A DNA stretch of 64,000 nt from assembly GCA_008508345.1 (NCBI GenBank), contig QNGE01003068.1, positions 1 to 64,000 of the forward strand, in the 5' to 3' direction. The stretch is from Paragonimus westermani (lineage: Eukaryota > Platyhelminthes > Trematoda > Plagiorchiida > Troglotrematidae). Below are positions 7,720-44,936 of the stretch, one piece after another. The position numbers were made by a program, and so were the translations under genes. Under the pieces are notes generated by a model, which was not told where the DNA came from, did not search any database, and worked only from the letters and a program-made list of their open reading frames with translations. Position 1 is the stretch's first letter; every line of letters begins with the position of its first letter.

Positions 7720-7738
7720 CACATTTCTTAGATAACAC

Positions 7739-7807
7739 CTAATTCGTAGTCATTGACAAAATGAGAAACAAACAGGAGAAAGCAACGAAACCAATACTCA
7801 TCGCCAT
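7739..7807 (-). pseudogene. signal-peptide leader exon, copy 1 (stop codon)
   Basis: From ATG at 7807 the frame reads 'MAMSIGFVAFSCLFLILSMTTN' and then TAG. The hydrophobic core (GFVAFSCLFLILS) with a short neutral N-terminus looks like a secretion signal. Copy 2 is identical through 'SMTT', then continues 'KEALSKK' to a good splice donor, whereas here the equivalent bases give a stop and the donor has become GTGGTA. I read it as a disabled duplicate of the exon at 16158-16242. The protein family is unknown. Confidence 0.4.
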
Positions 7808-7840
7808 ATCACAACGAATTCCAAGTTGGACTGTACACCC

Positions 7841-7850
7841 GAATATATAA
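7841..7850 (-). promoter_or_regulatory. TATA-like box upstream of the leader frame, copy 1
   Basis: The minus strand reads TTATATATTC, 34 bases upstream of the ATG at 7807. A start site about 30 bases downstream of the box would leave a very short 5' UTR. The identical arrangement is present in copy 2. Confidence 0.45.
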
Positions 7851-8274
7851 ACCACTGAATCAAACCAACTGAATGAATATCGTTGAACAACACGACACTG
7901 AAATCTCAGAGAACTCTCATCGGACACTCAAATTCTGAAGGATGCCACAGTTCCTTCCGATCTCACGGACCCACTCATTTAACAGTCTACTCAAAACGTT
8001 GAGCTTTTTGAATGCACTCTCCTCAACTGTCCGCCAGAACACTCGTGCTCTACTCACGCGGTCGCTTGCGCGAAATGACGAGGTTTTCGCGTGTGATTGA
8101 GCTGGTCACGTACACACCAGATTGAACGAGAATGGAGTTATGGTGTATTATCAGATCGGATGATCTTGGACCGCGTCCACGTCGAATGCAGTGGATCTGT
8201 TCGAACTCGGTGTTTTTCAACAAAACCGAAATGTAATTTGCGGCCGCCATCTAGATTTCATATGAACCATTTTG

Positions 8275-10290
8275 CTGAGACGTTTCCCCTGAGTCTTCCA
8301 TATAGTTTATACGACAGTGAAGCATAGTTCTCCTGTGGTCCGTATAAAAACAAGGGGACGAACACAGTCAACAAGAGTTTTTAAGTTGGTCCGTCGGCTT
8401 CTAAGCGCTGTTATATTAAAGTCATGTAAAATGGAGAATAAACTGTTACTTCCACGTTATAGTCCATTGAAATTGAAAATGTAAGCTGGTGTGTCATTAT
8501 CCGGAAAAACTAGTGCGAACGAATGACTAGGTAGGCGGCCGCGCCGCCAGCATGATGTGTCATCACGAAAAATGGCCCGGTGTGATCATTCAGTCTGCTG
8601 TTTGTTTGATGTTTCTTTCGAAGTGTTATCGACGCTTATCTTATACTGAACAGTGGTGCCGTCCCCATCACCCCAAATTTAAAACGGAAAAGCGGCAAAT
8701 CCATTCACTGCTTACTATAAACTAATCTACAGGCCGCGATTTTGGAGACATCAAGACGGAGAATGTGCACGACGTAATCAACATCACTGGAAGTCGGTGA
8801 GAGCAACTCCGAACTCTTCATGATTGGTAAGCTGACGATGATTTTAGTACTCGATTAACTGTAAGACAAGCGCAATAAAATATAACACTGTTAAAAGTAA
8901 GATTCAAAAGACTGGTTGCAACATTGTTTCTAATGTACAATTCTGAACAGATGTTAAGTATTACATTCATTCATAGTCCATCTATAGAAGCTAGTTCAGA
9001 GCCGGATGTCGATGTGTAAAGAAACTAGTTCATCTTCCTTCCCTTTGCACTACCACAAACCTCTGGTAATGAAGTTTTGATCAACTCCAGAATGAGAATC
9101 ACCAAGTAGACACTGAATCTAAAGAATGTGCGTTTAGGAATCTCATCAAGGCGTACTGTACTTCAAAGTTACTATTTCGTTTTCTTTTACCCTTGCTCAG
9201 CCTATTTAGGCAGAGGAGTGGGTTTCAGGGGAACACAAAGACAAAACTTCCCTTTCGGTCTGAAGATTTTCTATTGAGCTCACAAAGTAATCACAAGGAT
9301 AAGCTATCTCTTTCCTAAAATTCCTTGTGTATAATGAAATCGTATTTATTGCCTTTGTAAAAAGTTAGATTTAAATGGTGCATGAAAAATCAATGCGAAT
9401 GATTTCACTTCGATCAACAGCGACAATAACACATTTTGGTAGTCATCGGCATTCCCGGCCTAAAGATATCAAATCAGTGATGAATTCTGAATATGGGATT
9501 TTCCCCCGCTTATCGTAGCGTGAACCATTGTTACAAACTTTCGAATGTAAACACAAACAACGTTTACTCAGTAATTTACATTCTACTATGTCCCTGTTAC
9601 CATCACTTTTTCTTCCTCCGAACAATCCGCTTTTATCACTATATGCTTGATTCATCTTCTACTTCGGAAAATGTAGTTTATTGGATTCGAGCTTAGGCCC
9701 GTAGTAACTAAAGTATCGAGGTAAATGTTGTTTGAGCCGTTTCTACCCCATGAATTGAAGAGTACTGCAGAGTGGTCGCGAATTATCGATTACAAAATAC
9801 ACACCAAGGAACTCCATAGGATTGCACTGGAACAATCATGAGCAGCTAACCAGAAACCAGTAACTTGAGACTTATTAACTAACAGAAAGAAAGAGATAAG
9901 TTGTCAACGTTAGTTCAACGTGGGAAGCCTTCTTGTCACACCAAATCACGATGTGTGGATATTCCTTTCGAAAGAAGGTGATCGATTCTACAAAATGTAT
10001 TCTACTACATCAGTCCTAACGAATAAAGTGAAGGAGAGAACATTTTACCCATAAAGTCTGAATTCTTCCGAATTTATTCTGTCCCACGGTGTACGACTAT
10101 GTAATCAAATTCTATGTCAAGGTAAATTTGCCAATTTCTAGAAGATCTATACAGCGATGCCTATCTGTAAAGCCGGTGTACGCAGTGGGTCTGACAACCA
10201 CAGGTTGACTGCATTTTCGTTGACTGGCTCAGAGTTCACGGAGATCTGAACGGACAAACAGCCACATGAGCATTTCAGTCACTTCGCGCT
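8275..10290. other. unassigned stretch
   Basis: There is no open frame with recognisable homology and no clear repeat. GC-rich 'gcggccgcgccgcc' at about 8535 is the only compositional oddity. Confidence 0.45.
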
Positions 10291-10980
10291 GTGACCCGAC
10301 GACTGGCATACACTTCGAAAAGGAGTCTGGTGTTTTATCAGTTTACTTGCTGCTCAGGCAGACAGGGCAAAGCAGCTGACAAGTCAGCTGATGCAATCTT
10401 TATAGACTGTGTTAAAACGCTTGGCCAGGTATACCATTCAGTACTCAGCTTGAAGCTTTCTAACTATGGTAAGGAAAATTCTCCACTTTTTCGGTTCATT
10501 GATTACACCAAAGCTTGGATATCACTGAGCGGAGCATTTTTAGACCGGTGTTGTGTGACCAGCAGTGATCTACAAGGTTCTTTACTAGGGCTTCTGTTCT
10601 TTGTTTTGTTAGTGTTTGAGACTCAGGGGTCACGAATTTCTCGTTACTACTGCGTGTTGATTACACCGACATTTGCTGTTTGATGGGAAATGTAAATCAA
10701 GGTAAAAAAACTATGGAGCAATTTGAAGGCATCACACCTCTAGTTCACAGATAACCGAAACCAGTTTAATGTGGTATAATGTCAAACGGTGCACCCCCGT
10801 CATTCGCGTTGGACACAGTGCATTCCTGAGTAGAAAGTATTGGGTAGCAACAGTCGTGATTGTGATTTAAGAAAGACATGTTTCAGATGGCTTCACTCAA
10901 TCGTCAAACAGTTCGTCAGTAATCAAAAGCTAACTGGGTGCGTGGGTTACTCATCAAACTGCTTGGACGTTTTCACCGAG
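10291..10980 (+). pseudogene. CR1/jockey-like LINE reverse transcriptase fragment
   Basis: An open frame of 130 codons (10291-10683) contains 'DAIFIDCVKTLGQVYHSVL', matching the family's 'DVIFIDFSKAFDKVxHSLL', then 'LKLSNYG', and 'VTSSDLQGSLLGLLFFVLL' for 'VTSGVPQGSVLGPLLFLLYI'. The catalytic YADD position falls near 10655-10675 as 'DYTDI'. Further along, in another frame, 'WYNVKRCTPVIRVGHS' (about 10770-10820) fits the 'FNVxKCxVxRxGHS' block, and 'LGAWVTHQT' near 10940 fits 'DLGVWVT'. The order is exactly that of CR1-type RT, so the family call is firm although every catalytic motif is damaged. The open frame 10997-11341 just downstream may be its C-terminus, but I could not align it. Confidence 0.75.
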
Positions 10981-11569
10981 ACTTTTTGTTGATAACTTGG
11001 AATTCACAGAACTAACCAGCTTCGATAATTGTGTAGTTGGTAAACCTGTGGTTATTAGCAACATGTTTGAGTGGCTATTTTTTTGTAGTGATGTTTTTCT
11101 TGGAGCGCAGCATTGCAGTCCATTAGGATGGATTAGTGTGCTAGACGAGACGGTCACTTGTGGTATCACTAAACGTTTGAATTCTGTTTTCCAGATACGC
11201 GCATCACTTAGGTATAACAGATACATTGGAAATTCCAGTATCTTCTTCCCAGTAACACTCTTGAGGACCGGGAACTCTCACTTTACTTGGAATTCATTAA
11301 ACGATCTACCCATGACAACGTGTGTTCGGCCGTGTCGTTGAATATATTATAAACTGAGACTGGTCATTCTCTCCAGTACACTCGAGATATAGGCAAAACA
11401 GTCATTCCACCCCTCAATCATTTATTTGTTTCAACAAATGGACAGTCATTTTGGGCTATCCACGTATAGATAACCGGCTGGAATGAATAATGTACCGAAC
11501 TCACTGACTCGATTAATATCGCCCAACAGTTTCCGTGACGGGCTGCTCTAGATTTTCAACCCCCTCTCG

Positions 11570-11812
11570 TTACTCTAGTTTGCCCGGCATCCTATATTTT
11601 ATAGACAGTTTGGAAGGAATGTTCGTGTACGAACGAACATTGCATCCGAAACTGACAGGCCAAGGGTAGCATCCGGTAAATAACTCGTCCAGGCTATTGT
11701 GCAGGGTACCAAGGCACACAGAAACCAGTGAGATACCTGGTCGGACAAGCGACCTGTCCGTGCGGCCATAGAACAACAAATATGTGAACGTTAGACCATT
11801 CCAGGCAGTCAA
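11570..11812 (-). pseudogene. PLE GIY-YIG endonuclease fragment
   Basis: The minus-strand frame reads 'YLLFYGRTDRSLVRPGIS', like 'YIGRTDRCLxxRxxEH' of the Penelope GIY-YIG domain with the I of YIG lost. It continues through a degraded 'SLDELFTGCYPWPVSF', which fits 'SIxxHLxxTGHxVDPxxSF', to 'RSYTNIPSKL'. It is isolated: no RT part is seen upstream and no recognisable ribozyme downstream. Confidence 0.55.
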
Positions 11813-12685
11813 GTAAAGTGCATCGAAGGGCGGGATGCGTTACAGCTTCTTACTGTCTACAACGTTAGCTGAACCTAAACACTGGACCAAACAAACTCAA
11901 CCTCAGATCATTCAAAAAAGCCGGGTATACCTTCCAGTAATCACACGGTGCAGCGAGTGGATGATGACGTGAGTCAACTCACATCACCCAGCCAACCAAC
12001 GTGAGGGGAAAGCTCAATAAAGATAGCAGCATCACTGCGTTGAAAGTCCACAGTAGTGACTCAGAAGAAAACAGTGTATCATCCAGTAGAATCAAGTAAG
12101 TCATCCAGCAACAAGAACGGGTGAATCAATCTATCAACAGATTACAGCGTTTAAGCTCAGTTTTACACTACAATATATTTTTGATCAACGTCCCATTTTC
12201 CTCGTGATTTCTGGAGAACCAACACCCTGAATCTTGACTACAACGTCACCGCACTCAGTGTTCTGTGTTCCAAATTCGCGCACGTGTGAGCACATGGCTA
12301 TGTTTATCTGACCAGGTTAATAGTCAAGTATAACATGATTATCGAGTAGGATACGGAGGAGCCAACAGGGCTAAAAAAGAGAATCATAAATCATTGTAGT
12401 AGCTACGGAACGAAGCTACAAATTCACGTAAAAATTTACGCACATTTTCCCACCACACACCGCATTCTTTATGCCACGGGACGGCAAGGGGTCAACGGAT
12501 TGCCGTTTATTGTTATTGAGTTAACGAAAAATGTCACAAAAGGAACTCCCGATTAGAAAACAAAGCATTCTCACTTAAAGAATAGGAATTCACCACAACC
12601 GAATGACTTGTTCCGGCTGTACAGTATATGAGTTAATTTACTCATTTGACAAAATGGTGTAAAACAGGAAACTGGGAAACATCAT
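11813..12685. other. unassigned stretch
   Basis: Stops are dense in all frames. No element was recognised before the inverted PLE arm at 12686. Confidence 0.45.
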
Positions 12686-12963
12686 CAAAACCGTTAGAAC
12701 ACGAAACCTGGTAGGTGCAAGCATTTCGTATTGACTCGTGAGTACCAAATCTACGATAACAGGAAACGGGATTTTTATATCGAGCAGTTGGGGGGGCAGA
12801 GTGGATAGTCAATCAGTGGATTAAGAAATGCCACTAAGTCCAGGGAATGGTCCAGTTTACAAGCAATTGTTTCCGAACACACAGGGTCGGCCTCAGTTGA
12901 CTGATTGCGACCGCCTCGGCAAACCGCAGGAATCTTAGATTGGAGTGACGTAATAGGATTCTG
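12686..12963 (-). mobile_element. inverted copy of the PLE 3' end (left arm)
   Basis: Read on the minus strand, this is the last part of the PLE coding region ('LRFLRFAEAVAISQLRPTLC' in the frame covering 13073-12834) followed by its 3' UTR and ribozyme motif. It mirrors 13102-13375 on the plus strand. The inner end meets plus-strand PLE coding sequence at 12964 with no spacer. This is the inverted-terminal layout seen in Penelope-type insertions. Confidence 0.8.
12708..12748 (-). ncRNA. hammerhead ribozyme motif, core-mutated copy
   Basis: On the minus strand: stem I 5' strand TTGGTA, then CTCACGA where the core should be CTGANGA, stem II loop GTCAATAC, GAAA, stem III TGCTTGCA, then CC and stem I 3' strand TACCAG. 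Stem I still pairs over six positions. The core G is changed to C, and the U of the cleavage-site UH is C, so it should not cleave. Its partner in the right arm (13319-13359) is intact. Confidence 0.7.
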
Positions 12964-13415
12964 AAAGAACATTTGCCCAAATGGGTGCAGAGCTCTGTAT
13001 TACAGAAGAACGATAATGTCGTTGAAACTCGCAAACAACCAGCGTCCGCAGTCGCAAGACACGTTCTGACCACTGGTCACGTTAGCGACCCAGTTGGTGC
13101 ATCCAGAATCCTATTACCTCACTCCAATCCAAGATTCTTGCGGTTTGCTGAGGCGGTCGCAATCAATCAACTCAAGCCGATCGTGTGTGTTCAGAAACAA
13201 TTGCTCGTAAACTGGACCCTTCCGTGGATCTAGTGACCTTTCCTAAACCAACAGTTGAGTATACACCCTGCCCCTCTGACTTCTCGATATAAAAATCCCG
13301 TTTCCTGTTATTGTAAATTTGATACTGACGAGTCAATACGAAATGCTTGCATCTGTCAGTTTTCGTGTTCTAACGGTTTTTGTTGAAACTTCTGAAGGGA
13401 ATGAACTGTTTCAAA
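12964..13415 (+). mobile_element. PLE C-terminal fragment with 3' UTR
   Basis: The plus strand starts mid-domain at 'KEHLPKWVQSSVLQ' and reads through 'ETRKQPASAVARHVLTTGH', 'LRFAEAVAINQLKPIVCVQK' and a terminal 'NWTLPWI' followed by TAG at 13231-13233. Only the end of the GIY-YIG region and the C-terminal tail remain. The 3' UTR carries a hammerhead motif and shares its last bases ('gaactgtttcaaa', to about 13415) with the copy at 44841. This is the same subfamily as the long copy at 45-46.7 kb. Confidence 0.85.
13319..13359 (+). ncRNA. hammerhead ribozyme, intact core
   Basis: A 41-base motif: stem I 5' strand 13319-13324 (TTGATA), CTGACGA 13325-13331, stem II GTCAATAC 13332-13339 (two pairs and a tetraloop), GAAA 13340-13343, stem III A13343 to T13352 with ATGC pairing GCAT, cleavage-site base C13353, stem I 3' strand 13354-13359 (TGTCAG, six pairs, two of them G-U). 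All core bases match the hammerhead consensus CUGANGA/GAAA/UH. Penelope-like elements are known to carry such ribozymes in their terminal regions. Self-cleavage would fall after 13353. Confidence 0.85.
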
Positions 13416-13730
13416 ACATTATCATCTCGAACGAGTGTAATGAGGATTTATGCAGTCGGGTGTTTCATCTGGTCGTTCTGCTATAGAACAAGACTAAATA
13501 AACTAACACATTTGCTGCATTAAAAACAATCCAACCATCACCGCAAAATAGTAAACAGGTAACATATTGACTCACAGCCGACGTCTGATAGAGTTGCAAA
13601 AATGTATCGATTGGACTGGAAGAATTATTAATGTTATAAACTATTCTACAAACCATACCCTGCCATTGTTAGCTGGCATATTCATCCAATTTCCTTTGTT
13701 GCTGCGCGTCGTTTCTGGAGTTTTTGCTAG

Positions 13731-13929
13731 ACAAATAGACAATGAATTTGGGATGAAATTGTACCATTTTGTTAGTTTTGATGGACATGCCAGTAGTAAA
13801 CGTTGCAGTCAAATTTACGACGACCGACAAATTAAAACACGGACAGCAGCCGTTTCAAAAGAATTTCGTGCCATCGAACAATTTATCCGTAAAGTGACTT
13901 ACCTCTACAAGGGTCACCAGAAGGCCTGA
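13731..13929 (+). CDS. unidentified exon-like frame, possible last exon
   Basis: A pyrimidine-rich run ending 'tttttgctag' at about 13730 could be a splice acceptor. After it a frame reads 'QIDNEFGMKLYHFVSFDGHA' and continues to 'VTYLYKGHQKA' and a TGA at 13927-13929, about 65 residues, hydrophilic, with a mixed and natural-looking codon set. The frame is also open upstream to 13567, but the upstream translation looks like intron. I recognise no domain. An open frame of this length is not significant by itself in this window, so this is a candidate only. Confidence 0.3.
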
Positions 13930-14063
13930 ACAGCCTGAAGACCTTGGTGCGCACTAATGTAGTCATATGGACAGTCATTCAAACTGCATGAGCGCAAACG
14001 CTGTTACAAGTCCAACAGATTCATCATACATTATTCATTGGTAGCAACTGTAAGCGAGTTACT

Positions 14064-14303
14064 CTAGTTATCTCCTGGCGAAATGCGTTTGGCGAGATGT
14101 AAAAATGTGATAAATGAATATATGGGGTCACTGAAACCAGCACAGAATCCACTCTCCTCATACAGTTGTAAGGAAGAAACATAGCTATTGATAAACAGAT
14201 AAACACGACGCCCAAACTGTTCAACTTCATTCGGACTAAATTTGGTGCGGATATCTTGCAACGGATTAATAAAAGAAACATAAATCCTGAATCCATTGTG
14301 CAC
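14064..14303 (-). CDS. unidentified exon-like frame
   Basis: The minus-strand frame reads 'GFRIYVSFINPLQDIRTKFS', then 'NEVEQFGRRVYLFINSYVSS', and ends 'AKRISPGDN' with TAG. The composition, with regularly spaced aromatic and acidic residues, looks more like protein than most frames here. I see no clear splice donor before the stop, so it would be a terminal exon; acceptor choices (after 'gtag' or after 'ttcag') are both weak. No family is recognised. It lies downstream, on the same strand, of the leader exon at 16158-16242, but the exon phases I can propose do not match well. Confidence 0.3.
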   Translation of the reverse strand: MHNGFRIYVSFINPLQDIRTKFSPNEVEQFGRRVYLFINSYVSSLQLYEESGFCAGFSDPIYSFITFLHLAKRISPGDN

Positions 14304-14305
14304 AA

Positions 14306-16155
14306 GCTACATTCTCCAATCTTCTTGATGAACCCAAGATCTGGATTATTGAAACAGGATTTGAACTACTAATGATTCACCGTCTAGGTATGAAGCTTAG
14401 AGATGTTTATTCGGCAACTCACTGCTCATTACCCGGATGAAAAATTCACAGACATGGAGTTCCCTTAGAACCAAAGTTTGCGATTACAAACTATGGTATG
14501 ACTGATTTTCCCAGATCCGAACGAATTTCAAAGAAGTCACAGCAACACTCAGAACAACCCACAATTCCCGCTTTGCACTCACACTTTGTTTACAAGTAAT
14601 AGACCTAGTTGGTAATGACGCGAACAATGCATAAGACATACTTCCCTATTTAGGTGTATGTAGGGGTGAGTATCGCGAAGATCAGGCTTTAGCAGTAGAG
14701 GTGATGTTGCACTTGTTGAACGTCTCGCGCAATGATGCCTCTTAGACATGCTCAACAAACGAAGTACAACTTCATCCTCTCTGAAGGTGTACAACTGTTA
14801 GCAAATAACGATAGTTGCAAAGCAGACCCATTCGAACTGAAAAATAGTCCCCTCTATTGGAGGTTTTCACAGGACCAGATTAGTACGAGCTATCAAACAA
14901 AATGAATGCAAATTGAACACCCTGTTTTTTAACCTTGTTTAACAGTGCACATACTGAGTTTTACTGCCAGAAGATACGTGGTAACGTTTGATTTCATAAC
15001 AAAAACGAATGTGAGGTTATCATTACTGGAATCTTACGGAAGGAGTGCAGCGCCAACTACTCTATTAAAACTGATGGTCAATTAATGTTAGAAACTATTT
15101 GTTCGAAGTGGTTATTTAACTTGGGATGCAAGGATTTCATAAGTTTAGTGGCAACGGTGCAATACCGATTGGCAAACAGTTCATCATTGTCACACGTTTC
15201 ATTCTATTTATACGAAGCAGTGTCTAACAACTGGGTGTTATAATCAAAACTAATACCATTTAGTATGTTCGCAAACGACCACTGTGTGGACCCTGTAACA
15301 AACAAGCTTCCAGCGACACACACCAGGCTTGCTAACGAACATTGTGTGGGTTCGGTCACTTTCCAGTTTTCTAAATTCGCCACATCGTTAGCAAGATGGA
15401 GTAGCCCCGAACATGGTTGAAACTATTGGGTTAACTGTCACTTAAACGTTGAACAGCACATTCGCAGGAAATCGCACCGTTCGAACCCACATGGACTTTT
15501 CATACCATTAAACAAAATGTCGTCCACTAAGTTTGCTAACTTCCGCAGTTTCAACCGGAAAGGCTATTCTAATCGTACGGTTGGTGAGTGAAGTTAAAAC
15601 GCTAATTGCATCTTCCCGTAAGATTAAGGGGCCATCTGAGTATTATTTACCAGAGAACATGACTAAGGGTTTCATATGAAAGTTCACCAGTGCCTAGGAT
15701 GAGGTCATTGGTGCAGTTGCCAGCAAGATTGCCTCAGGAAGACGTGACGGGAGCTCTAGTTCCGGCTACGAAAAGGGTATGCACTAGTGACAAACTATCA
15801 CAAAATTGAAACTCGAGCCTAATAATTCGTTTCAAAAGCGGCTGACTGAAAAGGCTTTTGAGAATAAATGGCTGCATGTAATTTTGCGTGTTGTCTTTCA
15901 TCGGTCACAATCCACTAATGATTACGCTGATCAAGTAACACGTTGACGTGGACATGACAAGTAATGTAGGTTACGTGTCAATATCCAGTTGATCTGAATT
16001 AGTAACAGAATCAATTACAACACATGGAGTGGTTTCATTATAAACTGAAAGTCAGATGATAACACGGGATGGACAAATGCCGGTGGATTTCAGACTAGCT
16101 GAAACAACCCGGAAAATCGGTATTAAAATAGTTGGCTGTATACTATTGATGACTC
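14306..16155. other. unassigned stretch
   Basis: No recognisable coding or repeat family. If the leader exon at 16158 is real, this would be its first intron (minus strand). Confidence 0.4.
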
Positions 16156-16157
16156 AC

Positions 16158-16242
16158 ATTTCTTAGATAGCGCCTCTTTCGTAGTCATTGACAAAATGAG
16201 AAACAAACAGGAGAAAGCAACGAAACCAATACTCATCGCCAT
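16158..16242 (-). CDS. candidate first exon encoding a secretion signal
   Basis: From ATG at 16242 the frame reads 'MAMSIGFVAFSCLFLILS' then 'MTTKEALSKK' and meets GTGAGT at 16157-16152, a strong match to the splice-donor consensus; the exon would end after one base of a codon (phase 1). The first 18 residues have the hydrophobic core of a signal peptide. The start is chosen because the TATA-like box sits 34 bases upstream and the longer upstream frame would read through the promoter. Fluke genomes are known for secreted proteins assembled from a signal exon plus small exons, which is one possible identity; I could not find the following exons. Unproven as a gene. Confidence 0.4.
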
Positions 16243-16275
16243 ATCACAACGAATTCCAAGTTGGACTGTACACCC

Positions 16276-16285
16276 GAATATATAA
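16276..16285 (-). promoter_or_regulatory. TATA-like box upstream of the leader exon, copy 2
   Basis: TTATATATTC on the minus strand lies 34 bases upstream of the ATG at 16242, at the position expected for a TATA-driven promoter with a short leader. Confidence 0.5.
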
Positions 16286-16966
16286 ACCACTGAATCAAAC
16301 CAACTGAATGAATATCGTTGAACAACACGACACTGAAATCTCAGAGAACTCTCATCGGACACTCAAATTCTGAAGGATGCCACAGTTCCTTCCGATCTCA
16401 CGGACCCACTCATTTAACAGTCTACTCAAAACATTCAGCTTTTTGAATGCACCGTCCTCAACTGTCCGCACTAACACTCGTGCTCTACTCACGCGGTCGT
16501 TTGCATGAAGTGACGAGGTTTTCGCGTGTGATTGAGCTGGTCACCTACACACCAGATTGAACGAGAATGGAGTTATGGTGTATTATCAGACCGAATGAGC
16601 TTGGACCGTGTCCACGTCGAATGCAGTGGATCTGTTCGAACTCGGTGTTTTTCAACAAAACCGAAATGTAGTTTGCTGCCGCCATCTAGATTTTATATGA
16701 ACCATTTTGTTGTGATGTTCTATTCGGGCTTTCTGTAGTGTATTAAGAGTGAACGTAAATAACTTCAAATGAACCTTGCTGTTTCAGCACGAAAATCTCG
16801 CTCAACAACATCAATGAATGTTGGATGGAGTAAGGTTAAACGTTAACCACCACGCAAGTAGGCCAATCCCGTAGAAGCTAACAATTGACGAGCAAAAATC
16901 AATTAATTCAATAGAAAAAAAGAGGTTAGTAGAGTATGTGGTCTAATTATCAGGCTAGAAGGCATA

Positions 16967-17389
16967 ATGGAGATTACAAAGAGCGAGAATGAGTTTTTCT
17001 CTGTACGTCGACCAACTTTACACTTAGCTTTGAAAACCTGCTGCATAGTCGAACCTTTTTGTCTCCCAGTTGATTACCTTAAGGAACTTATGCTTTTATG
17101 TACAGAGAATATCCGTTTTGATTTCGGCGGATTGTCCTATAAGCAATTTGATGGTGTGGCAATGGGTAGCCCATTGGGCCCTACACTTGCAGATATATTT
17201 TTAGGAATGATTGAATTAAAACTATCTGATGCTATAGATGTTGCCAGCCTCTGGAAGCGATATGTAGACGCTATTTTGATTTTTACTACTAATATTCATT
17301 TTGATTCACTCCTAAACCACTTCAATTCTGTTCATCCTAATCTTTCTGTTTCTCATGAGGAGGAAAAAACATCAGTTTATCTTTTCTAG
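16967..17389 (+). pseudogene. PLE reverse transcriptase part, YVDA
   Basis: 140 codons. RT signature 'FDGVAMGSPLGPTLADIFLG' (residues 61-80) and palm box 'LWKRYVDAILIF' (95-106). Penelope RTs have YVDD here; this copy has YVDA, so the second catalytic aspartate is gone. The frame ends at a stop after 'SVYLF'; the correct frame resumes as 'LSFLDILITRRQDGS', so there is a frameshift at about 17370-17385. The first 30 or so residues do not match the family and are probably flanking sequence. Confidence 0.85.
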
Positions 17390-17433
17390 ACATTTTAATC
17401 ACCAGACGGCAGGATGGCTCAGTACAACGCTCA

Positions 17434-18204
17434 GTGCACCGCAAAGCCACTTGGAGCGGTCAGTATTTGCAATTCTCTTCTTTTGCGCCCATTACTTACA
17501 AAAGAGGCCTGGTACGAACCCTGTTTCATAGAGCCCGGGAGATATGCACCGATGATTGTTTACAAGGAGAAGAGGCGAAATTAAGAAAGGTACTGCTTGC
17601 AAACGGTTACCCGGAGAAATTCATCGATGTTCACAGCCAGAAGAGACTGACAAAGTCTGTCGTGAGTACGGTTCCCAAGAAGCAGGTCTTTTTGAACCTA
17701 CCCTTCAAAGGCGATCATATCACAACCGATGTAAGTCAAAAATTACAATCTGCTCTAACTCGCACATTCCCTGCGGCTGAATTGCGATTGCTACTCACAA
17801 CTAGGAGTGTCACTCAGCTTATTCGTAGTCGTGACCTACCGAAATGTTCTGTCTCACATGTAATCTATCAGTTCACTTGCAGTTGCGGTGACATCTATAT
17901 CGGCAGAACAGATCGATGCCTACGACAAAGAATGGCTGAACATATGCCTAGGTGGTTGATACGCGCCATGACGCAACGGACATTGGCAACAGAACAATTG
18001 AGACGAAATCCGACCTCATCCATCACAAAGCACATCATGGAAACAGGTCACGTTGTTGACCCGGCCAACTCGTTTCAAGTTCTGTTACGTAATAAGAACC
18101 CCAAGTTGCTTGCTTTCTCCGAGGCGATGTTGATCAATACTCACCGTCCGGCTTTGTGTGTGCATAAACTGTTGACTCACGCAGTTTGTCTGCCCTGGAA
18201 CTGA
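17434..18204 (+). pseudogene. PLE linker and GIY-YIG endonuclease part
   Basis: 256 codons, in frame with PLE sequence that opens upstream of this ATG at about 17370, so the ATG is not a genuine start. In order: 'RKATWSGQYLQFSSF' (3-17), 'NGYPEKFI' (57-64), 'LPFKGD' (89-94), the GIY-like 'VIYQFTCSC' (143-151), 'YIGRTDRCL' (155-163), the TGH motif (204-206) and 'NTHRPALCVHK' near the end. Full Penelope order is RT, linker, GIY-YIG. The endonuclease would nick DNA for target-primed integration. The domain itself is intact; the element is dead because of the RT lesion and frameshift. Confidence 0.85.
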
Positions 18205-18293
18205 CGACAGTCTTTGTTTCATGTAAACCCAATGGTTGAATGTTTTTGATTGTGTTGCTAACCGCATGTCCTATATATTCTAAGGTTTTACGT

Positions 18294-18334
18294 TCGTGAC
18301 TGAAGAGAGTAAACGAAATGTTAACATCTCGCGA
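18294..18334 (+). ncRNA. hammerhead ribozyme of the 17-kb PLE
   Basis: Stem I 5' strand 18294-18299 (TCGTGA), CTGAAGA 18300-18306, stem II GAGTAAAC 18307-18314 (outer G-C pair, an A-A mismatch, GTAA loop), GAAA 18315-18318, stem III ATG/CAT closing a TTAA loop (18318-18327), cleavage base C18328, stem I 3' strand 18329-18334 (TCGCGA). Stem I has six pairs, one G-U. The core matches CUGANGA/GAAA/UH. Stem II is weakened. The sequence is largely different from the 13-kb motif but folds the same way. Confidence 0.75.
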
Positions 18335-18340
18335 TGTATG

Positions 18341-21204
18341 TCTTCTATCGTTATTGGTGAATCAGATTTCAGTCGTGAGGTCGGACGTCTGTGCGTTATC
18401 TGGACTTTTCCCGTGTTGCTTTCTGATGTCCCCTGTAATGTGATTTGCCCTGACGCCCCGAATGCTATATATGACCTTTTCACTTAATTCGCTTTGTCTG
18501 ACTTCCACGTATGGTAATCGTTTTGTCCTATAAACTTAGAGCTTCTGTGGCCTGATTTTGACTATCTCCCAGTAAACAGTGCTGCCGACTCTTTTATACT
18601 TGTCGGTTTTGGATCAAGCGGTTGAGCACGTCAAATAGTTTGCAGTTAGTGGAACAAACTATTTGGAAAGGGGAGAGGCGTTTGACTAGTTGGCCAAACA
18701 GTAATCGGTGTGATGACAAGTTAGACGCATGCAATAACAACATCTGAGCCACCTTTTATTCTAGTAAAAATATCATCATTAATAAAAGATAGGGGTAGGT
18801 GCTCTTTTCTCACTGCCTGCGTGCGTTTTCAAATAAGCTTCGATGGGTGGCCGCTTCCAGCCACGGTACCTCACTTTCAGCTTGTTCTAGACTTTCGTTG
18901 CTAGATATATGTATCAAACGATCGTCCAACGTTAATCCAATGTTGCCTTTTCACTAAACACTATTGAAATCCAGGTGTCCTAACCAAGTAACGTTCTGTT
19001 AAACTGACCGCTGTGTCAAGCCGTTCGTTTTACGAGACCTTAGGAAACCTAAAAAATCTAGAGGAACTCTTGGAACCTATTTAATTCGACGCAACCAAAT
19101 ATTCAGTAGAAGGGAATCTTCAACTTACAAAAGTTGCGACCACGACAAAATTGCGGTTTCATGAAATGTTGCCTCACTGACCATCAAAGTGCTTCGGCTC
19201 TGCACAGTTGATCTAATTTGTGCACATACGTCTACAATCCATAAGAACTCATAGATTCAGTGTTTCTTTGTAATGAGTAAGTTTAGATGGCCAAATTTAT
19301 CAGCAATATGACCGCGTAGCAATTGTTACCTATATGTGTTGTCCGCTTGCAAATATTTTTATTAAATTTCGAATAAGAAATAATTGATTTATCAGAACGA
19401 AGATTGTTCCACAGACTCTTCTTTCTATACCAAACCGGACGCTGAAGTGAAGAGCTTCTGAGGTTTATAAAACCCATTTATCCACACAGCGCCCTTAAGA
19501 TTTCTGTCATATGATAATGGACAACTAGTAACAGGTCGGATTTTATTTCCATGTTTTATGTATTCCACCTCGACTTACATGCTAGAGCGTATTGTCTTAA
19601 TGTTCACTGAAGTTGATAGCTCACTTGTTCATGTGTCTTCTTGCAAAACCAGTTTGTTGGAAAGATTGTCTCACCACATACACTTTCCCATATACACTGT
19701 CAACCGATGGTCCACGGCAATGTAATTCTCAGCAAGACCGGTCGTTCTTAGGCCAGTTACATCTATTCGTATGTTAAGTGAAGCAGACTACTGCGTTGTT
19801 GGTCAGCTACAGATGGCACGGTGCTGACTAGAAGAAATGTACGCCAAACGGTTTAGCAGATGAAAAATATTTATGGAGAAAGCTTTGCGGCGGTCGAAAA
19901 AACCAGCAGTTGAAGAAAAGATACCGGAATATCTTGCTAATAAGATTGTACGCAAGAGGAGACAGGCAGAGAGAAGAAATTACAAAAAGCATGCATTGGT
20001 GTCAATGGTGGTTATCTGGGGCAACATTGAAGAAGATTACCTCCCCTGGAGGCAACTTAATCTGTTCGAAAGGGTTTTGACTAAAGTTTAACTAGTAATT
20101 GAAAAAACGCTGCAAATTGTTGAACCTAGAAGATCAAAGAAAAGTCAGTGGAAAACACACTTTCCAATATCAGACAAGCGAATTAATACGGGGGCTGTGA
20201 CATTTATGAGGATAAAACCAAAGGATGCATCCATCTCCGTATCATACATTTTAAGTAAAACCTACCCAGTTAGGTTGATAATGACCTGATTCTTGTTGCA
20301 ATATTGTAATGCAGTTGGTGGATACTGGCGTGAAACTTTTGGAGAATCCTCTGACGGCAGTCAAATACCTGGATCAACTGGCGGACCCCGGTGAAGTGAG
20401 CCTAAATTTGACATTTCTTAGCTCCAACAGGTGGCCTTCCAGACTTGCTGGAAAAACTTCTGGCTCCTCTGGGCACACTGTTTCTGTTAATGCCAACAGA
20501 AAGACGTAGCCGTCAGTTTGGAATTGTTGTGAAAACGGAACGATCTCATTGCTCGTGTTTATATGTGTGTTTGTGCGTGTGGTCGTATCCCGCGATCTTT
20601 TCTGCTACTTTAGCCTGGCGGTCAAGGCTGCTTGCTGTTCTGATCCAGCTAGCTATGCTGACCAGGACATCGGTCCTTGCAGGTCCAACCATGTTAGATT
20701 GGGCAAACGAAGGCAGCCGGAAAATAGCACTTACACTCCTTGTGGGTAGTGCCGGTGTTCTGTGTTTTCGTTTGGCTTGATGTCTGCCCCTGATCGATCT
20801 GGTTTTATGTGTTTCTGACTTATTTGCTTCTGCAAAAGTTTTGGTTATTTTAACTACAAGTATGTGGTCCTCGAGCATGTGCGTGGTTATCGCAATTCAG
20901 ATCTGGCTGGTAGTCGTTGTTTAGATCGCTTGTTTTATGTGTGCCACACGCTGCCAATCGATACAGGCTTTTGGGCCGAATGCCTTTTTTGAAAACCTTA
21001 ATATCTCTCCTGCCTTGGTCTGGGCGTCCTGGCAGTATCCAAAACCGACATCAACCATGATTAGACAAAGTGAACCAGATACCACATTGCATCAGTCCTC
21101 GCGTTAGATAAACCAGGTCGCCCTGTGTGCTGTGGGTGGCAGGGTGATTAAGCAAAGACATGCTACCACCAAACCTTCCTCCTTCCTAAATAATCCCTCC
21201 CGCA
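18341..21204. other. mostly unassigned; possible LINE 5' UTR at right end
   Basis: A short charged frame starts with ATG at 19873 ('MEKALRRSKKPAVEEKIPEY', stop near 20091) and looks protein-like but has no family I know. GC-richer sequence from about 20500 to 21200 has a composition like the RTE endonuclease region that follows and could be that LINE's 5' UTR; this is a guess from continuity. Confidence 0.35.
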
Positions 21205-22368: not shown

Positions 22369-24264
22369 CCTGGTTGAATGGCAGCAACACGAACCTCCAG
22401 ACAGGTCTGTTTCCACGCCCCCTGGATTAGTGAAGGCAATGAGGTAAGTTGGTGAATTACACAACATCCATCTTCTTAATGAGTTGTGTTCCACACATGT
22501 TCAGTCCATGTTTACAAATGCTCCACGAGACAATTGTTGGTTGAAAGCTTCTTGGAACGATTCATGTTACTTAACCTATGCCGACCGATGTTCTGGGGGG
22601 TACCCTACTGTTATGCACTGAACATGTTAGCCTCCACTTTATTGGTCGTTGCTACCGCCAGTCATAGCAAGTTCGCTGGGATTCATCAGAGCCGACTCCT
22701 CATGTTGAAGATTGAAAAAGTGTTGGCCGTAAACACGGCAGTGTTGCCATACCACTAATATCAAATGATTGTAAAGAGACAGTAAGTAAGTTTGCGCTGC
22801 GCCTACCTAGCGGACGTCCCAACCTGAAGATAACGTGTAATCTTGAGAGAGATGATCGTCACCTTTTCCAGACATATTCATTTGTCGCCGCAAACAGTTT
22901 CCCTTTAAAAAGACAGTCCACAGGAAACCTACGTGATTCGATTAATACCTGAGCTTTAACACCATTACACCGGTCCATCATAGGCGTACACTGATGAACA
23001 CAAATTACACGAGCAAAACGATTCTATAGAGTCCAGCGGAGGAATGAGACTTGATTACTACTCTCCTTCGATCAACTGGCAACTTCAAAATTTGAACAGG
23101 AAGGAGCAGCAGACAAAGTTAATTTTCGAAAGGCGATCGTTTTGTAAGAACAAACCGCTTATACAGAGCTGCTTTTAAAATCTGAGTACCTCATGCGCTA
23201 AACAAAACGATGATTGGGATGCTCGATTGGGTGAACATTTGCTGCAACCGGACTCTGTGTATCAGCTCGGATCCAGAAGATGTGCGTGTTTTCAATCAAG
23301 GGGGATCAAACTTTTGGCGCCAGCTAACACTGTATATGTAACCGCAGCTGTCCTTGTACTTAGCCGAGCCTCAGTTTGCTGACCGTTCCTAGCCCGCTGA
23401 TCAAATATCTATCCTATCCCCGTGTCTGTTTGGTACCAAAAATCTGTTACTGATGCGGCAACGCGATTTGTCTACATTCACCACCCTCCATGTTCACACT
23501 GTTACGTTCAACTTCTGAAAATAACCAACCACTTTAAATGAAACACATCGTTATTTGACCTTGAACTTTTTGTCCATGTAAGTCTCAGAATGTCGCACAG
23601 TCACCCGACATACAACCAGCGTATTACCAAAACAAGCTAGCTCCACTATAGGGTGACCAAGTCCATTCCTAACTGGTCGCAAAATCATGTGTGCTGAGTT
23701 AGTGACATCTGCAGCTAGTGCACACACTGTCGGGAATTCCAAAATTCAGCTTTTCCTCCACTGTCAACCTCACCTGACTGTTGCAGAAAAATTCTTGGAA
23801 ACGTCTTCTCCCAGAAAAACCACAAACACTTTGAGGTCCTCTTCCTAGTGTTAGTGCAAGTTTAACGGTTATCCTGAAATCAGCAGGTCCTCCCACCCTA
23901 CCCTGCAAGCTTCCACTCGTTTAATCGGTAATCGGTAATAATCCAGACCATTCTAATCTAATCACAAGGCTTTTTTAGTCCAGTTTTTATTTAATTTGTT
24001 AACCACGTATATCTGGTACAGTTCTATTCACACGAAATATAATTACGTACATCGGCATTGTTTGCGTTGTAATTGTAAGTAGCATTCCTACCAATATTCT
24101 CATCTCATCATCCAAAACACTGAATCATACTAAATTACTCAGATGATACACATTGTGTCGTAATTACCCTATGTGCTTGCAGATAGCTACCAATGTTTGA
24201 TTGAAATTCACATCATCATCCACGTCTGTCAGATGTTCGAAGATCACGTTAATTATCAAGTATG
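22369..24264. other. unassigned stretch
   Basis: The LINE homology stops near 22368. The open frame 22486-22758 has no family resemblance I can see. Confidence 0.4.
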
Positions 24265-24480
24265 GACTGAATTCCAGGAATTTGGTTATTTCACTCACAT
24301 TCGTTCACAATTCTCGCATTCAAATAAGTGTTGCAAAGAAGCACTAGACTCTAATGTCGCTCTTAACAGACCTCTTCAATAGTGTACATCTTGGTCAAGC
24401 CGGAATTTACACTCCGATACTCGTGTTTTCGAGACTACGTTATTAACCACAACGCCATCGAGTTTCATAATCTAGATCGG
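24265..24480 (-). repeat. tRNA-derived SINE copy
   Basis: On the minus strand a tRNA-like head has 'ggcgttgtggttaa' (box A-like, 24443-24456) and 'ggagtgtaaattcc' (box B-like, 24402-24415), followed by a body shared with 35269-35500 ('aagcactagactc' on the plus strand at about 24340) and the tail segment near 24290-24330. Box B spacing and the shared order of parts support a pol III SINE. Confidence 0.6.
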
Positions 24481-28580: not shown

Positions 28581-29889
28581 AGGTTTACAAAATGAAATGA
28601 ATTTTCTGATTCTGTTTTGGAATAGTCGGGATAACTTGTACCGATCTGCGTGATCCAATAATATTCTGCTAAACTTCTGTGTTTTACCTACACAGTTTTG
28701 CTTTCCCTGGACTCGTATGATTGTAACAGTCTGATGAAGAATTGTTGAAAACAGTTGTCCGTTAAGGTTTTTGCAAGAAAACTCAAAAAATTTTCGTGTT
28801 TGTTATTGACTGTCTAAACACAATTCCCAGTTTATCCATGGTCAAAAATGACTTCCGTTGTTTATTGGAGTTGAATCTAGGCAGAAAGTGTGTTCTCGAC
28901 TACTCACCAACCAGCCAATTAAATACCAACTCACACCAATATGGTCATGAAACCAGCGGAATCTAAAGCAACTTTTTATATAATTACGTCGAACAGTATT
29001 AAACCCAATACCAGTTTTGTGATTAAACTGTCCACTGAAGTTACCAAATTGACAATGGGATTCTTAGAAGTCGTATGCCTGAACAGATTTGTTCTGAGTA
29101 CATAACTGTGGATTGTATAACCCAATTCAGATCGTCTCAGCGGTGACCAGATGATAAAATTTGACTCATTTGGAGTGACAGCAAAGTAGGCGTTAAATCG
29201 GCTAGAGAGCCACCTCTGATGAGACCCAGTGCACCAGAATTGGACTCACAACAGACCTCACGGTCATGAGAGTGACGTTCACATCCTCTGTAAAAGACGC
29301 CTAGTTGTAAGACGGAGATTACTTGCATCACAGCAGCATGTGGAAGAGTGATCACAAGAAGTGGGTCGCACATTTAGGCTACAAGCATTTCCAGTCGTAA
29401 GTAAATACTATGTAGCATGCACTTTGAATCCGCGTATTCAAGTTTATGCAGCTTGAATAAGAGGAATTGTGCAGTTGTGCTTCAATGCAGACAAGCATAC
29501 TTCAAGAAGGTGTCACCATTCCTCGGAATCCAGTATACGCACACTACGCATGGTTCGCTGTTGGAGAGCAAAAGTAAGCTTTATTACCAGCAGTTAGAAC
29601 TGTCGAGACATAATCACTTGTGACATTTCTCGTCGTACATAATTCATAAGACAACATAACTCATCTCAAGAATCCAGTAACAGTAGGTCCTGTTGATCTT
29701 TAGTCATCTGCATAATGAAGCTGCAAGGCTGAGAATTGCCGTGTGCAAATTAAGCTAGTTTGTAACACGGCTTTTTGGCTTAAGGTCACAGTCAGCAAAT
29801 GGTATAGTAAAACAGATTCAGACAAATACGTACTCCAGATGACACCACGTTTGGTGATTAAGTGTCTGGAAACTGAATGTCAAAAACAG
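28581..29889. other. unassigned stretch
   Basis: No recognised coding or repeat family. A CTGATGA at 28732 was examined as a ribozyme and rejected. Confidence 0.45.
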
Positions 29890-30400
29890 CGGACTTGTGA
29901 AGCATGAGAAGAATAAAATAGCCAACATGACTTGATTTCTATGTTTGGTCATCAGGTTAGCTATAACATAATAAATGTTAGAGAAGTAACTACGCTGAGT
30001 CAGTAAAACTGGTAGTATGGGCTATGGCCAGTGTGTTTTTGACAGCCACGTAGGCACTGTTTCAAATCGCAGGCTTGATTGATTGTGGGCCGATGAAGAT
30101 TAGGTGTCCACAGGAAACTCCTCCGGGCGACGAGACCAATGTTTTCGTTCCGCTAAATCAAAGTGAACCTCATACAAAGTCTGGCGGGAAAAATATCAAC
30201 AATCTGCACCCATGACACTTTAGAATCTGAGCAGACTGGCTACCCAAAGCGTTTCACCCAGAAGACGACCCAGGCTGTGGAATTGAAACTTAACTCGTGT
30301 GGATAATGAACGTAAGTTTATTAATCTCCCTTTCAAGGAAAACCCCACGGTTGAAGTAACCGCAGAGTGGAACAGAAAATCAATCGGAACAGTATACTCT
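29890..30400 (-). mobile_element. PLE remnant, left half of a head-to-head pair
   Basis: On the minus strand, 'VGFSLKGRLINLRSLSTRVK' (about 30345-30285) fits the 'LPFKGDxIN' block of PLEs. After a short gap that must be a deletion of the GIY-YIG domain comes the C-terminal tail 'RRSFLWTPNLHRPTINQACD' (about 30130-30070), matching the 56-kb copy's 'KKFVRTLNLPWPTISQAHD'. The 3' UTR continues to about 29890 and contains a decayed ribozyme motif. Confidence 0.7.
29918..29964 (-). ncRNA. decayed hammerhead motif of PLE subfamily B
   Basis: On the minus strand: CTGATGA, CCAAACATA, GAAA, enclosed by a nine-base helix (ATAGCTAAC with GTTGGCTAT). The core boxes survive but stem II is lost and the cleavage base position is G. 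Aligned with 30666-30712 and 55884-55930 it is a remnant, not a working ribozyme. Confidence 0.45.
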
Positions 30401-30740
30401 TCCAACCAGTTGTGCCTGAGTTTCCATCCAACACCGGATATCATGTCATGTTGAGTGCTACCGAGACCATGAGTACCGGATTGCACAACCCTGAACTCTG
30501 AGTTCTCTAAAAGGTCTTGCGGACACCCACTCTCTATCGGCCTACAATCCGTCAAGCCTACAATTGGAAACAGTACCTGCGTAGCTGTTACATACACGCT
30601 GTTCATAACCCCTATTGCCCGTTTTACTGACTTACCATAGTTACTTTTCTAACATTTATTGTGTTGTGATTGGCGTGCAGTTCAAACACGGAAATCAAGT
30701 CTTGCTAGCTACTTTGTTGTTCTTACGAGTTCAATGGATA
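30400..30740 (+). mobile_element. inverted PLE 3' end, right half of the head-to-head pair
   Basis: The plus strand reads 'TETMSTGLHNPEL' then two stops and 'KVLRTPTLYRPTIRQAYN' (about 30457-30585), the same C-terminal tail as on the minus strand at 30.1 kb, followed by 3' UTR sequence matching the reverse complement of 29900-30030 at roughly 80% by eye. The element end is thus present twice, in opposite orientation, around the coding remnant. Confidence 0.75.
30666..30712 (+). ncRNA. decayed hammerhead motif, inverted partner
   Basis: It aligns with 29918-29964: GTGCAGT at the CTGATGA position, TCAAACACG, GAAA, then CTTGCTA. The enclosing strands (GTGATTGGC and GCTAGCTAC) still pair mostly, using different base pairs from the left copy. 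The core is destroyed. Confidence 0.35.
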
Positions 30741-35268: not shown

Positions 35269-35500
35269 GATGAGTAGTCGAGGATTTGGTTTATTTTCAA
35301 GTTGACCATCACTCACATTTGATCGCAACTTTCGCATTCAGGTAGATATTCTAGCCAGTCTTTTTCGAAAATAAGCACTAGACTTGAGTTTCCCTCTCAT
35401 TAGAGCTCGTCAGTAGTGCATATCCTTGCCACGGCCGGCATTTGAACTCTGACTATTCCAATCATGAGGCAACCGTGTTGACCACTGCGTGTAAACACGC
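35269..35500 (-). repeat. tRNA-derived SINE copy
   Basis: Minus strand: box A-like CAGTGGTCAACA (35488-35477), box B-like GAGTTCAAATGCC (35449-35437), a body with the 'aagcactagact' block shared with the 24-kb copy, and a tail ('ttggtttattttcaagttga' on the plus strand) shared nearly perfectly with 41559-41635. This copy is the most complete and best shows the tRNA-head / body / tail order. Confidence 0.65.
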
Positions 35501-37722: not shown

Positions 37723-37940
37723 TCTGATTAGTTGGCACTGAACATCACCCTCATTTGATCATACTGTTCGCATTCAGGTAAATCTTTCGGCCATCCCACT
37801 GCCTAAGGCGAAGCTGGAATGAAACTACGCTGTTCTAAAGGCTCACTATTGTTTCATATACTTGTCCGAGCCGGACTTTACACTCCGACCCTCGTGTTTG
37901 TGAGATTGGCATGTCAACCACAACACCAGCAACCTCACAC
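37723..37940 (-). repeat. tRNA-derived SINE copy
   Basis: It carries the same tail block ('catcaccctcatttgatcat' near 37743), body and tRNA-like head (box B around 37870-37885, box A around 37910-37925) as the 35-kb copy, diverged. Its head is one arm of the inverted repeat at 37868-38331. Confidence 0.6.
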
Positions 37941-38331
37941 TGAACATGACTGAGCATTCACATGTGAACGTACAAATAAAACTTTGTGTGAAGAAGGCTC
38001 AGAGTCCCTGACGATCTCCATAGGAGAAACAATAACTGTCCTGTCAACTCCAGTCAATAACTCCGTGACTACAAGCATCATCGGATCAACTGAGCAATGT
38101 ATACAGTTTGGAATGAAATTCGAAGATTCTGAATATTTCAAACTGAACACAGTACAGGGAGGTTGTTGTTTTCTTCCATAAAGATCGTAGAAAAATCTGA
38201 ACACTCTTCACACAAAGTTACATTTATACGTTCACATATGACTGCTCAGTCATGTTCCGTGTGAGGTTGCTGGTGTTGCGGTTAACATGCTTGTTTCATA
38301 AACACGACGGTTGGGGTGCAAATTCCGGCTC
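37868..38331. repeat. inverted repeat, 127-bp arms, 210-bp loop
   Basis: The left arm 37868-37994 and the reverse complement of the right arm 38205-38331 align end to end with substitutions only, roughly 80% by eye. Both arms contain a SINE head plus flanking sequence ('ccagcaacctcacac'). Since the similarity runs past the SINE into flanking DNA, this is an inverted duplication rather than two independent insertions. Confidence 0.75.
37995..38181 (+). CDS. unidentified open frame in the inverted-repeat loop
   Basis: The loop is open on the plus strand: 'EGSESLTISIGETITVLSTP', 'VNNSVTTSIIGSTEQCIQFG', ending 'NTVQGGCCFLP' with TAA at 38179-38181. It is hydrophilic, threonine/serine-rich and protein-like, with no start codon of its own other than one in the arm. 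It could be a captured exon. The reverse strand is also open, so the coding call is weak. Confidence 0.25.
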
Positions 38332-38400
38332 AGGCAAGGATACGCCCAGTTTCTTTCGTTCTCCCACTCTCACAATTCGAACAGAATAACCACCGAAACT
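38205..38400 (+). repeat. tRNA-derived SINE head, plus orientation
   Basis: The plus strand has 'gttgcggttaacatgc' (box A-like, about 38275-38290) and 'ggggtgcaaattccgg' (box B-like, about 38313-38328), followed by 'ctcaggcaaggata', parallel to 'ccgtggcaaggata' in the 35-kb copy. The body beyond 38350 is not clearly conserved. Confidence 0.5.
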
Positions 38401-41558: not shown

Positions 41559-41635
41559 CTGATGAGTAGTCGGGGATTTGGTTTATTTTCAAGTTGACCA
41601 TCACTCACATTTGATCGCAGCGTTCGCATTCAGAT
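41559..41635 (-). repeat. SINE tail, cut by an N
   Basis: Nearly identical to the tail of the 35-kb SINE from 'ctgatgagtagtcg' to 'cgcattcag', then interrupted at 41636. The body and head that should follow are missing. Confidence 0.7.
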
Positions 41636-41687
41636 NTCTGAATGCGAACGCTGCGATCAAATGTGAGTGATGGTCAACTTGAAAATA
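41584..41687. repeat. perfect 51-bp palindrome around an N
   Basis: 41584-41634 and 41637-41687 are exact reverse complements, separated by T and N. The left arm is SINE tail. A mismatch-free palindrome with an N at its centre points to an assembly join of two strands or haplotypes, not an evolved hairpin. Confidence 0.9.
41636..41636. other. single N, assembly join
   Basis: Undetermined base at the centre of the palindrome. Order and orientation of sequence left and right of it should not be trusted. Confidence 0.85.
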
Positions 41688-44895: not shown

Positions 44896-44936
44896 CTGTT
44901 AGATGCAAGCATTTCGTATTGACTCGTCAGTACCAG
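44896..44936 (-). ncRNA. hammerhead ribozyme, intact core
   Basis: Minus strand: stem I 5' strand CTGGTA (44936-44931), CTGACGA, stem II GTCAATAC, GAAA, stem III TGCTTGCA, T and cleavage base C (44903-44902), stem I 3' strand TAACAG (44901-44896). Core and stems II and III are identical to the 13-kb motif; stem I has five of six pairs with one G-A mismatch. It sits about 125 bases 3' of the stop codon, the same place as in the other copies. Confidence 0.85.

What the first reader, a model, noticed from the sequence alone, without database searches (positions are those of the whole stretch)
13319..13359. Intact hammerhead ribozyme in the terminal region of a Penelope-like element
CTGACGA, a two-pair stem II, GAAA, stem III and a UC cleavage site are all present, with a six-pair stem I. 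That PLEs carry hammerheads is established; this copy, in a window otherwise made of dead elements, still has every core base. Cleavage is predicted after 13353.
Basis: partly seen in the sequence, partly recalled or inferred. Interest (0 to 1): 0.75.

Follow-up and report, generated by a model that had tools for sequence, protein, structure and literature searches.

The report
Hammerhead ribozyme in fluke retroelement fragment
This is a real but ordinary self-cutting RNA motif of the kind already known from Penelope-like jumping genes, kept with an intact core in a truncated fragment that also carries an inverted, broken copy of itself, so this copy may be unable to work when read through.

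Summary
The motif is at the stated coordinates: stem I 13319-13324/13354-13359 (6 pairs, two G-U), CTGACGA 13325-13331, two-pair stem II, GAAA 13340-13343, stem III, and UC with predicted cleavage after C13353. It is not chance. A structure descriptor finds three hits in the window, against 0.04 per dinucleotide shuffle. All three lie 94-99 nt behind the end of a Penelope-like (PLE) coding region. A covariance model built without copy C finds C at E 2e-6, and stem I covaries (four sequences). Rfam alone would not have confirmed it: no match reached gathering score; the best for this copy was 25.8 of 56.3 bits. The host is probably Paragonimus or a close trematode.

The PLE assignment is right; that this copy is special in being intact is not. 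Copies at 18300(+) and 44930(-) keep the core too, and an intact core needs no selection. An inverted copy at 12687-12970 carries a broken hammerhead and in read-through RNA is predicted to pair with 39 of 41 ribozyme bases. Folding energies give the active shape no support. Cleavage is untested. A new member of a known kind.

The parts
13319..13359 (+). minimal type I hammerhead ribozyme (copy A): stem I 13319-13324/13354-13359, CTGACGA 13325-13331, stem II 13332-13333/13338-13339, GAAA 13340-13343, stem III 13343-13346/13349-13352, predicted cleavage after 13353
   Evidence: direct reading; descriptor and shuffles; Rfam below gathering; covariation
12962..13415 (+). 5'-truncated PLE fragment A (C-terminal coding piece plus 3' tail with the hammerhead)
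   Evidence: full-length alignment to 45291-44841(-)
12967..13233 (+). PLE C-terminal coding piece, 88 codons open to a TAG at 13231-13233
   Evidence: tblastn with P0012, E 5.5e-21; translation
13288..13295 (+). TATAAAAA, TATA-box-like, 37 nt before the core; kept in copies A, Ainv and B; promoter function is inference only, no promoter test was run
   Evidence: direct reading and alignments
12687..12970 (-). inverted partner arm (284 nt, 86% complementary to 13097-13380)
12708..12748 (-). hammerhead of the inverted arm (Ainv), broken: CTCACGA for CTGACGA and C in place of U16.1
44896..44936 (-). hammerhead copy B behind the PLE of the 46447-44966(-) cluster; core intact, one stem I mismatch
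18294..18334 (+). hammerhead copy C, another PLE subfamily, behind the coding pieces 16907-18204(+); core intact, stem II one pair
   Evidence: model R3, built without it, 26.5 bits, E 2e-6
23444..23484 (+). weak remnant (8.2 bits, E 8.2) at about the expected place behind PLE fragment D (22484-23357+)
   Evidence: not significant by itself

Best explanation
A minimal type I hammerhead belonging to the 3' tail (pseudo-LTR) of a Penelope-like retroelement in a trematode genome, probably Paragonimus. Shown by sequence: the motif, its place 94-99 nt behind the PLE coding end in two subfamilies, its conservation and covariation. Inferred: in a tandem PLE transcript two such motifs would cut the RNA after the UC, as monomers or more likely as a dimer joined through their self-complementary stem III, and so set the ends of unit-length element RNA. 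This copy is a 5'-truncated fold-back fragment. Its core is intact but it is probably a relic: RNA read through both arms would lock it in a duplex with its inverted copy, and only RNA started behind the inverted arm would leave it free.
For: Descriptor: 3 hits against 0.04 per shuffle. All 3 lie 94-99 nt behind PLE C-termini; 4 of 7 fragment ends have an exact core in the 85-145 nt zone, and 0 of 20000 random placements of 7 ends reached 3 (zone chosen after seeing the offsets, three ends set approximately by hand, A and B near kin). Model from A, B and Ainv finds C at E 2e-6 in 64 kb. Stem I: 3 of 6 pairs with changes on both sides; 93.8% of cells paired, against 13.6-47.9% for slid structures. 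A against C: 21 of 29 bases from C3 to C17 the same, 26 of 84 upstream and 20 of 45 downstream (ungapped). PLE coding: RVT_1 E 2e-4 on 16907-17389, below Pfam's cut-off; tblastn E 7.7e-143 for B. Fold-back arms; 39 of 41 bases sequestered in the predicted read-through fold. PLE hammerheads, in tandem and possibly cutting as dimers, are described in PMC7761336 and PMC7229834 (passages).
Against: No Rfam match at gathering score. Nearest-neighbour energies do not favour the active fold: 41-nt monomer +2.5 against a minimum of -6.7 kcal/mol; two-strand form -7.1 against -18.1 (no known-active control was run, and these energies leave out the core's own contacts). The 52-nt fold is no better than shuffles (z -0.13). 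No tandem second copy was found in cis at this locus, only an inverted broken one. Against the proposed role: in the lizard PLE of PMC11167929 ribozyme mutants still inserted in vitro and no RNA-seq reads began or ended at the cut site (passages). Of 7 fragment ends, F has no core in the zone, D only a weak remnant, Ainv a broken core, and I a core at 136 nt that fails the descriptor. In one search the count of further pair types was reached by 31 of 500 shuffles. No expression or cleavage data.
Confidence: 0.85

Rival explanations
1. Chance match of a short motif in repeat DNA.
For: No Rfam match at gathering score; fold energy no better than shuffles.
Against: 0.04 descriptor hits per shuffle against 3 seen; fixed place behind PLE coding ends; leave-out model hit E 2e-6; covariation.
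Confidence: 0.02
2. A non-autonomous retrozyme or SINE-like hammerhead repeat (Sm-alpha kind), not part of a PLE.
For: Such elements are known in schistosomes (PMC6155905, PMC8490949, passages); a different hammerhead-like repeat is present at 35431-35358(-).
Against: The fragment begins in PLE coding sequence (12967-13230 open) and aligns end to end with the coding-tail junction of PLE B; the only direct-repeat family found in 8000-20000 lies elsewhere.
Confidence: 0.05
3. The hammerhead of this very copy is still functional and kept by selection at this locus (domesticated).
For: Core complete; 29 of 29 bases from C3 to C17 equal to copy B within a stretch 86.8% identical; two stem I pairs (columns 4-38 and 5-37) differ from those of Ainv without loss of pairing.
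Against: A complete core is expected in 12-41% of neutral copies; the inverted arm lost two core positions; fold-back sequesters the motif.
Confidence: 0.05

Closest known systems
Minimal type I hammerheads of Penelope-like elements (Cervera and De la Pena 2014; Lunse, Weinberg and Breaker 2017; neither held, only titles seen in reference lists)
   Same: Place in the PLE tail/pseudo-LTR, type I topology, small size, stem III self-complementary and so suited to dimers.
   Different: A short stem III (UGC-UU-GCA closed by A-U) is present, where the reviews say that PLE motifs usually lack helix III (passages).
PAc (Poseidon of Anolis carolinensis) hammerhead, PMC11167929 (passages and part 1 of section 3)
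   Same: Hammerhead near the pLTR-ORF junction of an RT plus GIY-YIG PLE; a shared element end a short way downstream, here 13415 and 44841.
   Different: In PAc the ORF starts at stem II and the authors call the ribozyme protein-assisted; no ORF start could be placed here.
Rfam RF03152 RAGATH-1-hammerhead
   Same: Best-scoring Rfam family for copies A (25.8 bits) and C (19.4 bits).
   Different: Scores far below the gathering score of 56.3; for copy B it comes second (17.6 bits).
Rfam RF00163 Hammerhead_1
   Same: Full-length alignment to copies A and B (18.1 and 20.7 bits).
   Different: Below the gathering score of 34; stem II region shorter than the model's; copy C not listed.

Membership tests
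Hammerhead ribozyme, type I | CUGANGA ... GAAA core, NUH cleavage site, A15.1-U16.1 pair | tested here: met
Hammerhead ribozyme, type I | three helices with open stem I | tested here: met
   stem II only two pairs
Hammerhead ribozyme, type I | Rfam gathering score for RF00163 | tested here: not met
   18.1 of 34 bits; a threshold of a library, not a feature of the molecule
Hammerhead ribozyme, type I | self-cleavage with Mg2+ | not testable with these tools
   needs a transcription assay
PLE-associated minimal hammerhead | lies in the terminal region of a PLE with RT and GIY-YIG domains | tested here: met
   GIY-YIG rests on the YIGRT motif and a sub-cutoff Pfam match of relative P0012 (E 0.038)
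PLE-associated minimal hammerhead | tandem copies allowing dimeric cleavage | tested here: not met
   at this locus the second copy is inverted and broken; genome-wide not testable, the own-genome search did not complete
Rfam RAGATH-1-hammerhead (its link to PLEs is recalled, not from a call) | Rfam gathering score for RF03152 | tested here: not met
   25.8 of 56.3 bits
Retrozyme / Sm-alpha SINE-like repeat | short non-coding unit without PLE coding sequence | tested here: not met
   12967-13230 codes for a PLE C-terminus

The most novel reading that the evidence does not exclude
In this trematode PLE subfamily the TATA-like box sits 37 nt before the core (in copy C a TATATATT sits 28 nt before it), so transcripts would start at about stem I and the hammerhead would be the first thing made. 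Cleavage would then trim a leader of some 35 nt from promoter-made RNA, while the self-complementary stem III (AUGCUUGCAU in copy A; the perfect palindrome AUGUUAACAU in copy C) would make cutting depend on a second copy: a check for tandem copies that fold-back insertions such as this one would defeat.
Probability: 0.1. Interest if true: 0.5.

Novelty: new member of a known kind. Interest (0 to 1): 0.2.

Why it matters
Hammerheads in PLEs are established, so this adds a trematode example with two subfamilies at one fixed place and stem I covariation. One paper search for hammerhead ribozyme together with Paragonimus gave 0 papers (open-licence library only, so absence from print is not shown). 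The role of these ribozymes in PLE movement is called unknown in PMC7761336 (passages), and intact, broken and inverted copies in one stretch are handy test material for the monomer-versus-dimer question.

Tried and rejected
Rfam at gathering score gave nothing. The other 8 of 11 exact core matches (28731+, 38008+, 55921-, 44124-, 42683-, 35413-, 29955-, 10919-) did not pass the descriptor (for 10919- the spacer is longer than the descriptor allows). Outside the window nothing was found: viral contigs by protein and by DNA pattern, genome contigs by protein, phage records by DNA; the tools warn that records near the window's own genome may be left out. Single-strand folding does not single out the hammerhead and was not taken as decisive, since no known-active control was run. 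Model R1 was built with a structure that I mis-drew by one column and was not used. R2 is circular for its four members, so the independent statement rests on R3.

Paper searches. Cervera 2014 and Lunse 2017 were not held, nor was a third PLE paper tried by a DOI that I recalled. Passages only were seen of PMC7229834, PMC6155905, PMC6515669, PMC7761336 and PMC8490949; of PMC11167929 passages and part 1 of 2 of section 3. For some searches all 50 proteins were queries (count checked); the protein alignments took 18 and 7 of the 50 plus the window's own piece.

In one search the 7 ends are A, Ainv, B, C, D, F and I of the 9 clusters; the two others (29076-29356 and 30160-30436) were left out because their matches do not reach the C-terminus. 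D has no such row either; the end of its cluster was used. B and F were set by hand near the tblastn ends. For I two ends are possible (56057 used, 56012 from another query). The zone of 85-145 nt was chosen after seeing the offsets. The 13 core positions of the neutral estimate are my count.

Full report
Observation. Two of the six stem I pairs are G-U.

Is it more than chance. The bare core CTGANGA-N(3-40)-GAAA occurs 11 times in the two strands of the window, so by itself it means little. With the helices required, 3 remain: 13325(+), 18300(+) and 44930(-). A hundred dinucleotide shuffles gave 0.04 per shuffle, and none of the 100 had a hit under the stricter form that copy A meets. Rfam gave no match at gathering score. 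Below it, copy A scores 25.8 bits with RAGATH-1-hammerhead and 18.1 with Hammerhead_1, copy B 20.7 with Hammerhead_1 and 17.6 with RAGATH-1, copy C 19.4 with RAGATH-1. All are below the cut-offs.

The element. Relatives of the coding piece 17362-18201 include a Paragonimus westermani protein (97% identical over 38% of the query) and less alike Echinostoma caproni and Fasciola hepatica proteins, so the window is probably from Paragonimus or a near trematode; no tool named it. tblastn with the 50 proteins finds 9 clusters of PLE coding sequence. The best, B (46447-44966, minus), matches P0007 over residues 1-450 of 462, E 7.7e-143. RT is supported by Pfam on the window (16907-17389, E 2e-4, below the curated cut-off) and above the cut-off on the relatives P0007 and P0012. 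GIY-YIG rests on the YIGRT motif and on a sub-cutoff Pfam match of P0012; the window piece 17362-18201 itself has no Pfam match.

The place of the hammerhead. Copy A is a fragment, 12962-13415, aligned end to end with 45291-44841(-). Its first part is an open 88-codon C-terminus ending in a TAG at 13231-13233. The core follows the last coding landmark by 98 nt in A, 99 in C and 94 in B. A fourth fragment, I, has a core at 136 nt that does not pass the descriptor. So 4 of the 7 fragment ends examined have an exact core in the zone of 85-145 nt; 0 of 20000 random placements reached 3. The zone was chosen after the fact and three ends were set approximately. Of the other three, Ainv has a broken core, D only a weak remnant (8.2 bits, E 8.2), and F none that I could see. 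A and B stop matching at 13415/44841, compatible with the PLE 'tail' that PMC11167929 explains by internal start of reverse transcription.

Conservation. A and C belong to different subfamilies: upstream of the motif 26 of 84 bases agree without gaps and about half with gaps; downstream 20 of 45 without gaps and 59% with gaps; from C3 to C17 21 of 29 agree. On the four-sequence alignment 93.8% of cells pair, stem I has 3 pairs with changes on both sides, and sliding the partner brings pairing down to 13.6-47.9%. A model from A, B and the inverted copy finds C as its best outside hit, 26.5 bits, E 2e-6; the next is 29407-29371(-), 16.8 bits, E 0.006. Four sequences are few, and three of them are close kin; the E-values of these short-calibrated models are rough.

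The locus is a fold-back: 12687-12970 is an inverted copy of 13097-13380 (86% complementary). Its own hammerhead has CTCACGA for CTGACGA and lacks U16.1. In the predicted fold of 12687-13380, 39 of the 41 bases of hammerhead A pair with that arm. Thus RNA read through both arms probably cannot cut, and the tandem partner that a dimer needs was not found in cis. RNA started at the TATA-like box 13288-13295 would be free of the arm; that start is inference.

Intactness. Copies B and C keep the core too. With 13 core positions, 41% of copies at 6.6% divergence, 25% at 10% and 12% at 15% would be intact without selection. So 'still has every core base' is no sign of present function.

Activity. 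Nearest-neighbour energies put the hammerhead fold of copy A at +2.5 kcal/mol against a minimum of -6.7, and the two-strand form at -7.1 against -18.1. These energies omit the core's contacts and I ran no known-active control, so I read them only as no support. Stem III, AUGC-UU-GCAU, can form a tight hairpin in a monomer or, with two U-U mismatches, an eight-pair helix between two copies; in copy C the same stretch is a perfect ten-base palindrome (direct reading). Against a role in movement, PMC11167929 reports for the lizard PLE that ribozyme mutants still insert in vitro and that no RNA-seq reads begin or end at the cut site (passages).

Verdict. A real PLE-type minimal hammerhead, a new member of a known kind in a probable lung-fluke genome, most likely a relic at this locus. 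Interest is low; the fold-back and the two-subfamily covariation are modest additions.

Noticed in passing
35358-35431 (-): A different hammerhead-like motif: Rfam Hammerhead_HH9 27.9 bits (gathering 52), E 0.0085 in the whole window, the highest hammerhead score there; longer stem II but G-G at its first pair, so it fails the descriptor. It sits in a repeat with partial copies such as 15713-15847, 24291-24450 and 37715-37889, perhaps SINE- or retrozyme-like.
   Followed up: partly
29955 (-) and 55921 (-): Two related repeats (70% identical) with CTGATGA...GAAA cores that fail the descriptor. Around the core, TGTGTT/AACACA in one is TATGTT/AACATA in the other, a paired change that could mark another fold (read by eye). 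55921 lies 136 nt behind a PLE C-terminus.
   Followed up: partly
29371-29407 (-): Looks like a decayed relative of the copy A hammerhead (model R3 16.8 bits, E 0.006; model R2 13.7 bits, E 0.13), just upstream of PLE coding fragment 29356-29076(-) instead of behind a C-terminus.
   Followed up: no
29907-30723, 37857-38342, 41584-41687: Other self-inverted (fold-back) repeats in the same window, so this arrangement is not peculiar to the hammerhead locus.
   Followed up: no
7720-8321 and 16155-16753 (+): A 602-bp direct repeat at 93% identity, the most alike of the repeat pairs over 500 bp in that self-comparison; not identified.
   Followed up: no
43969-44062 (-): Partial copy of the tail of PLE copy C (78% identical to 18264-18359) with a decayed hammerhead (CTGAAAA...GGAA; model R2 9.5 bits, E 3), lying near PLE B.
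   Followed up: partly
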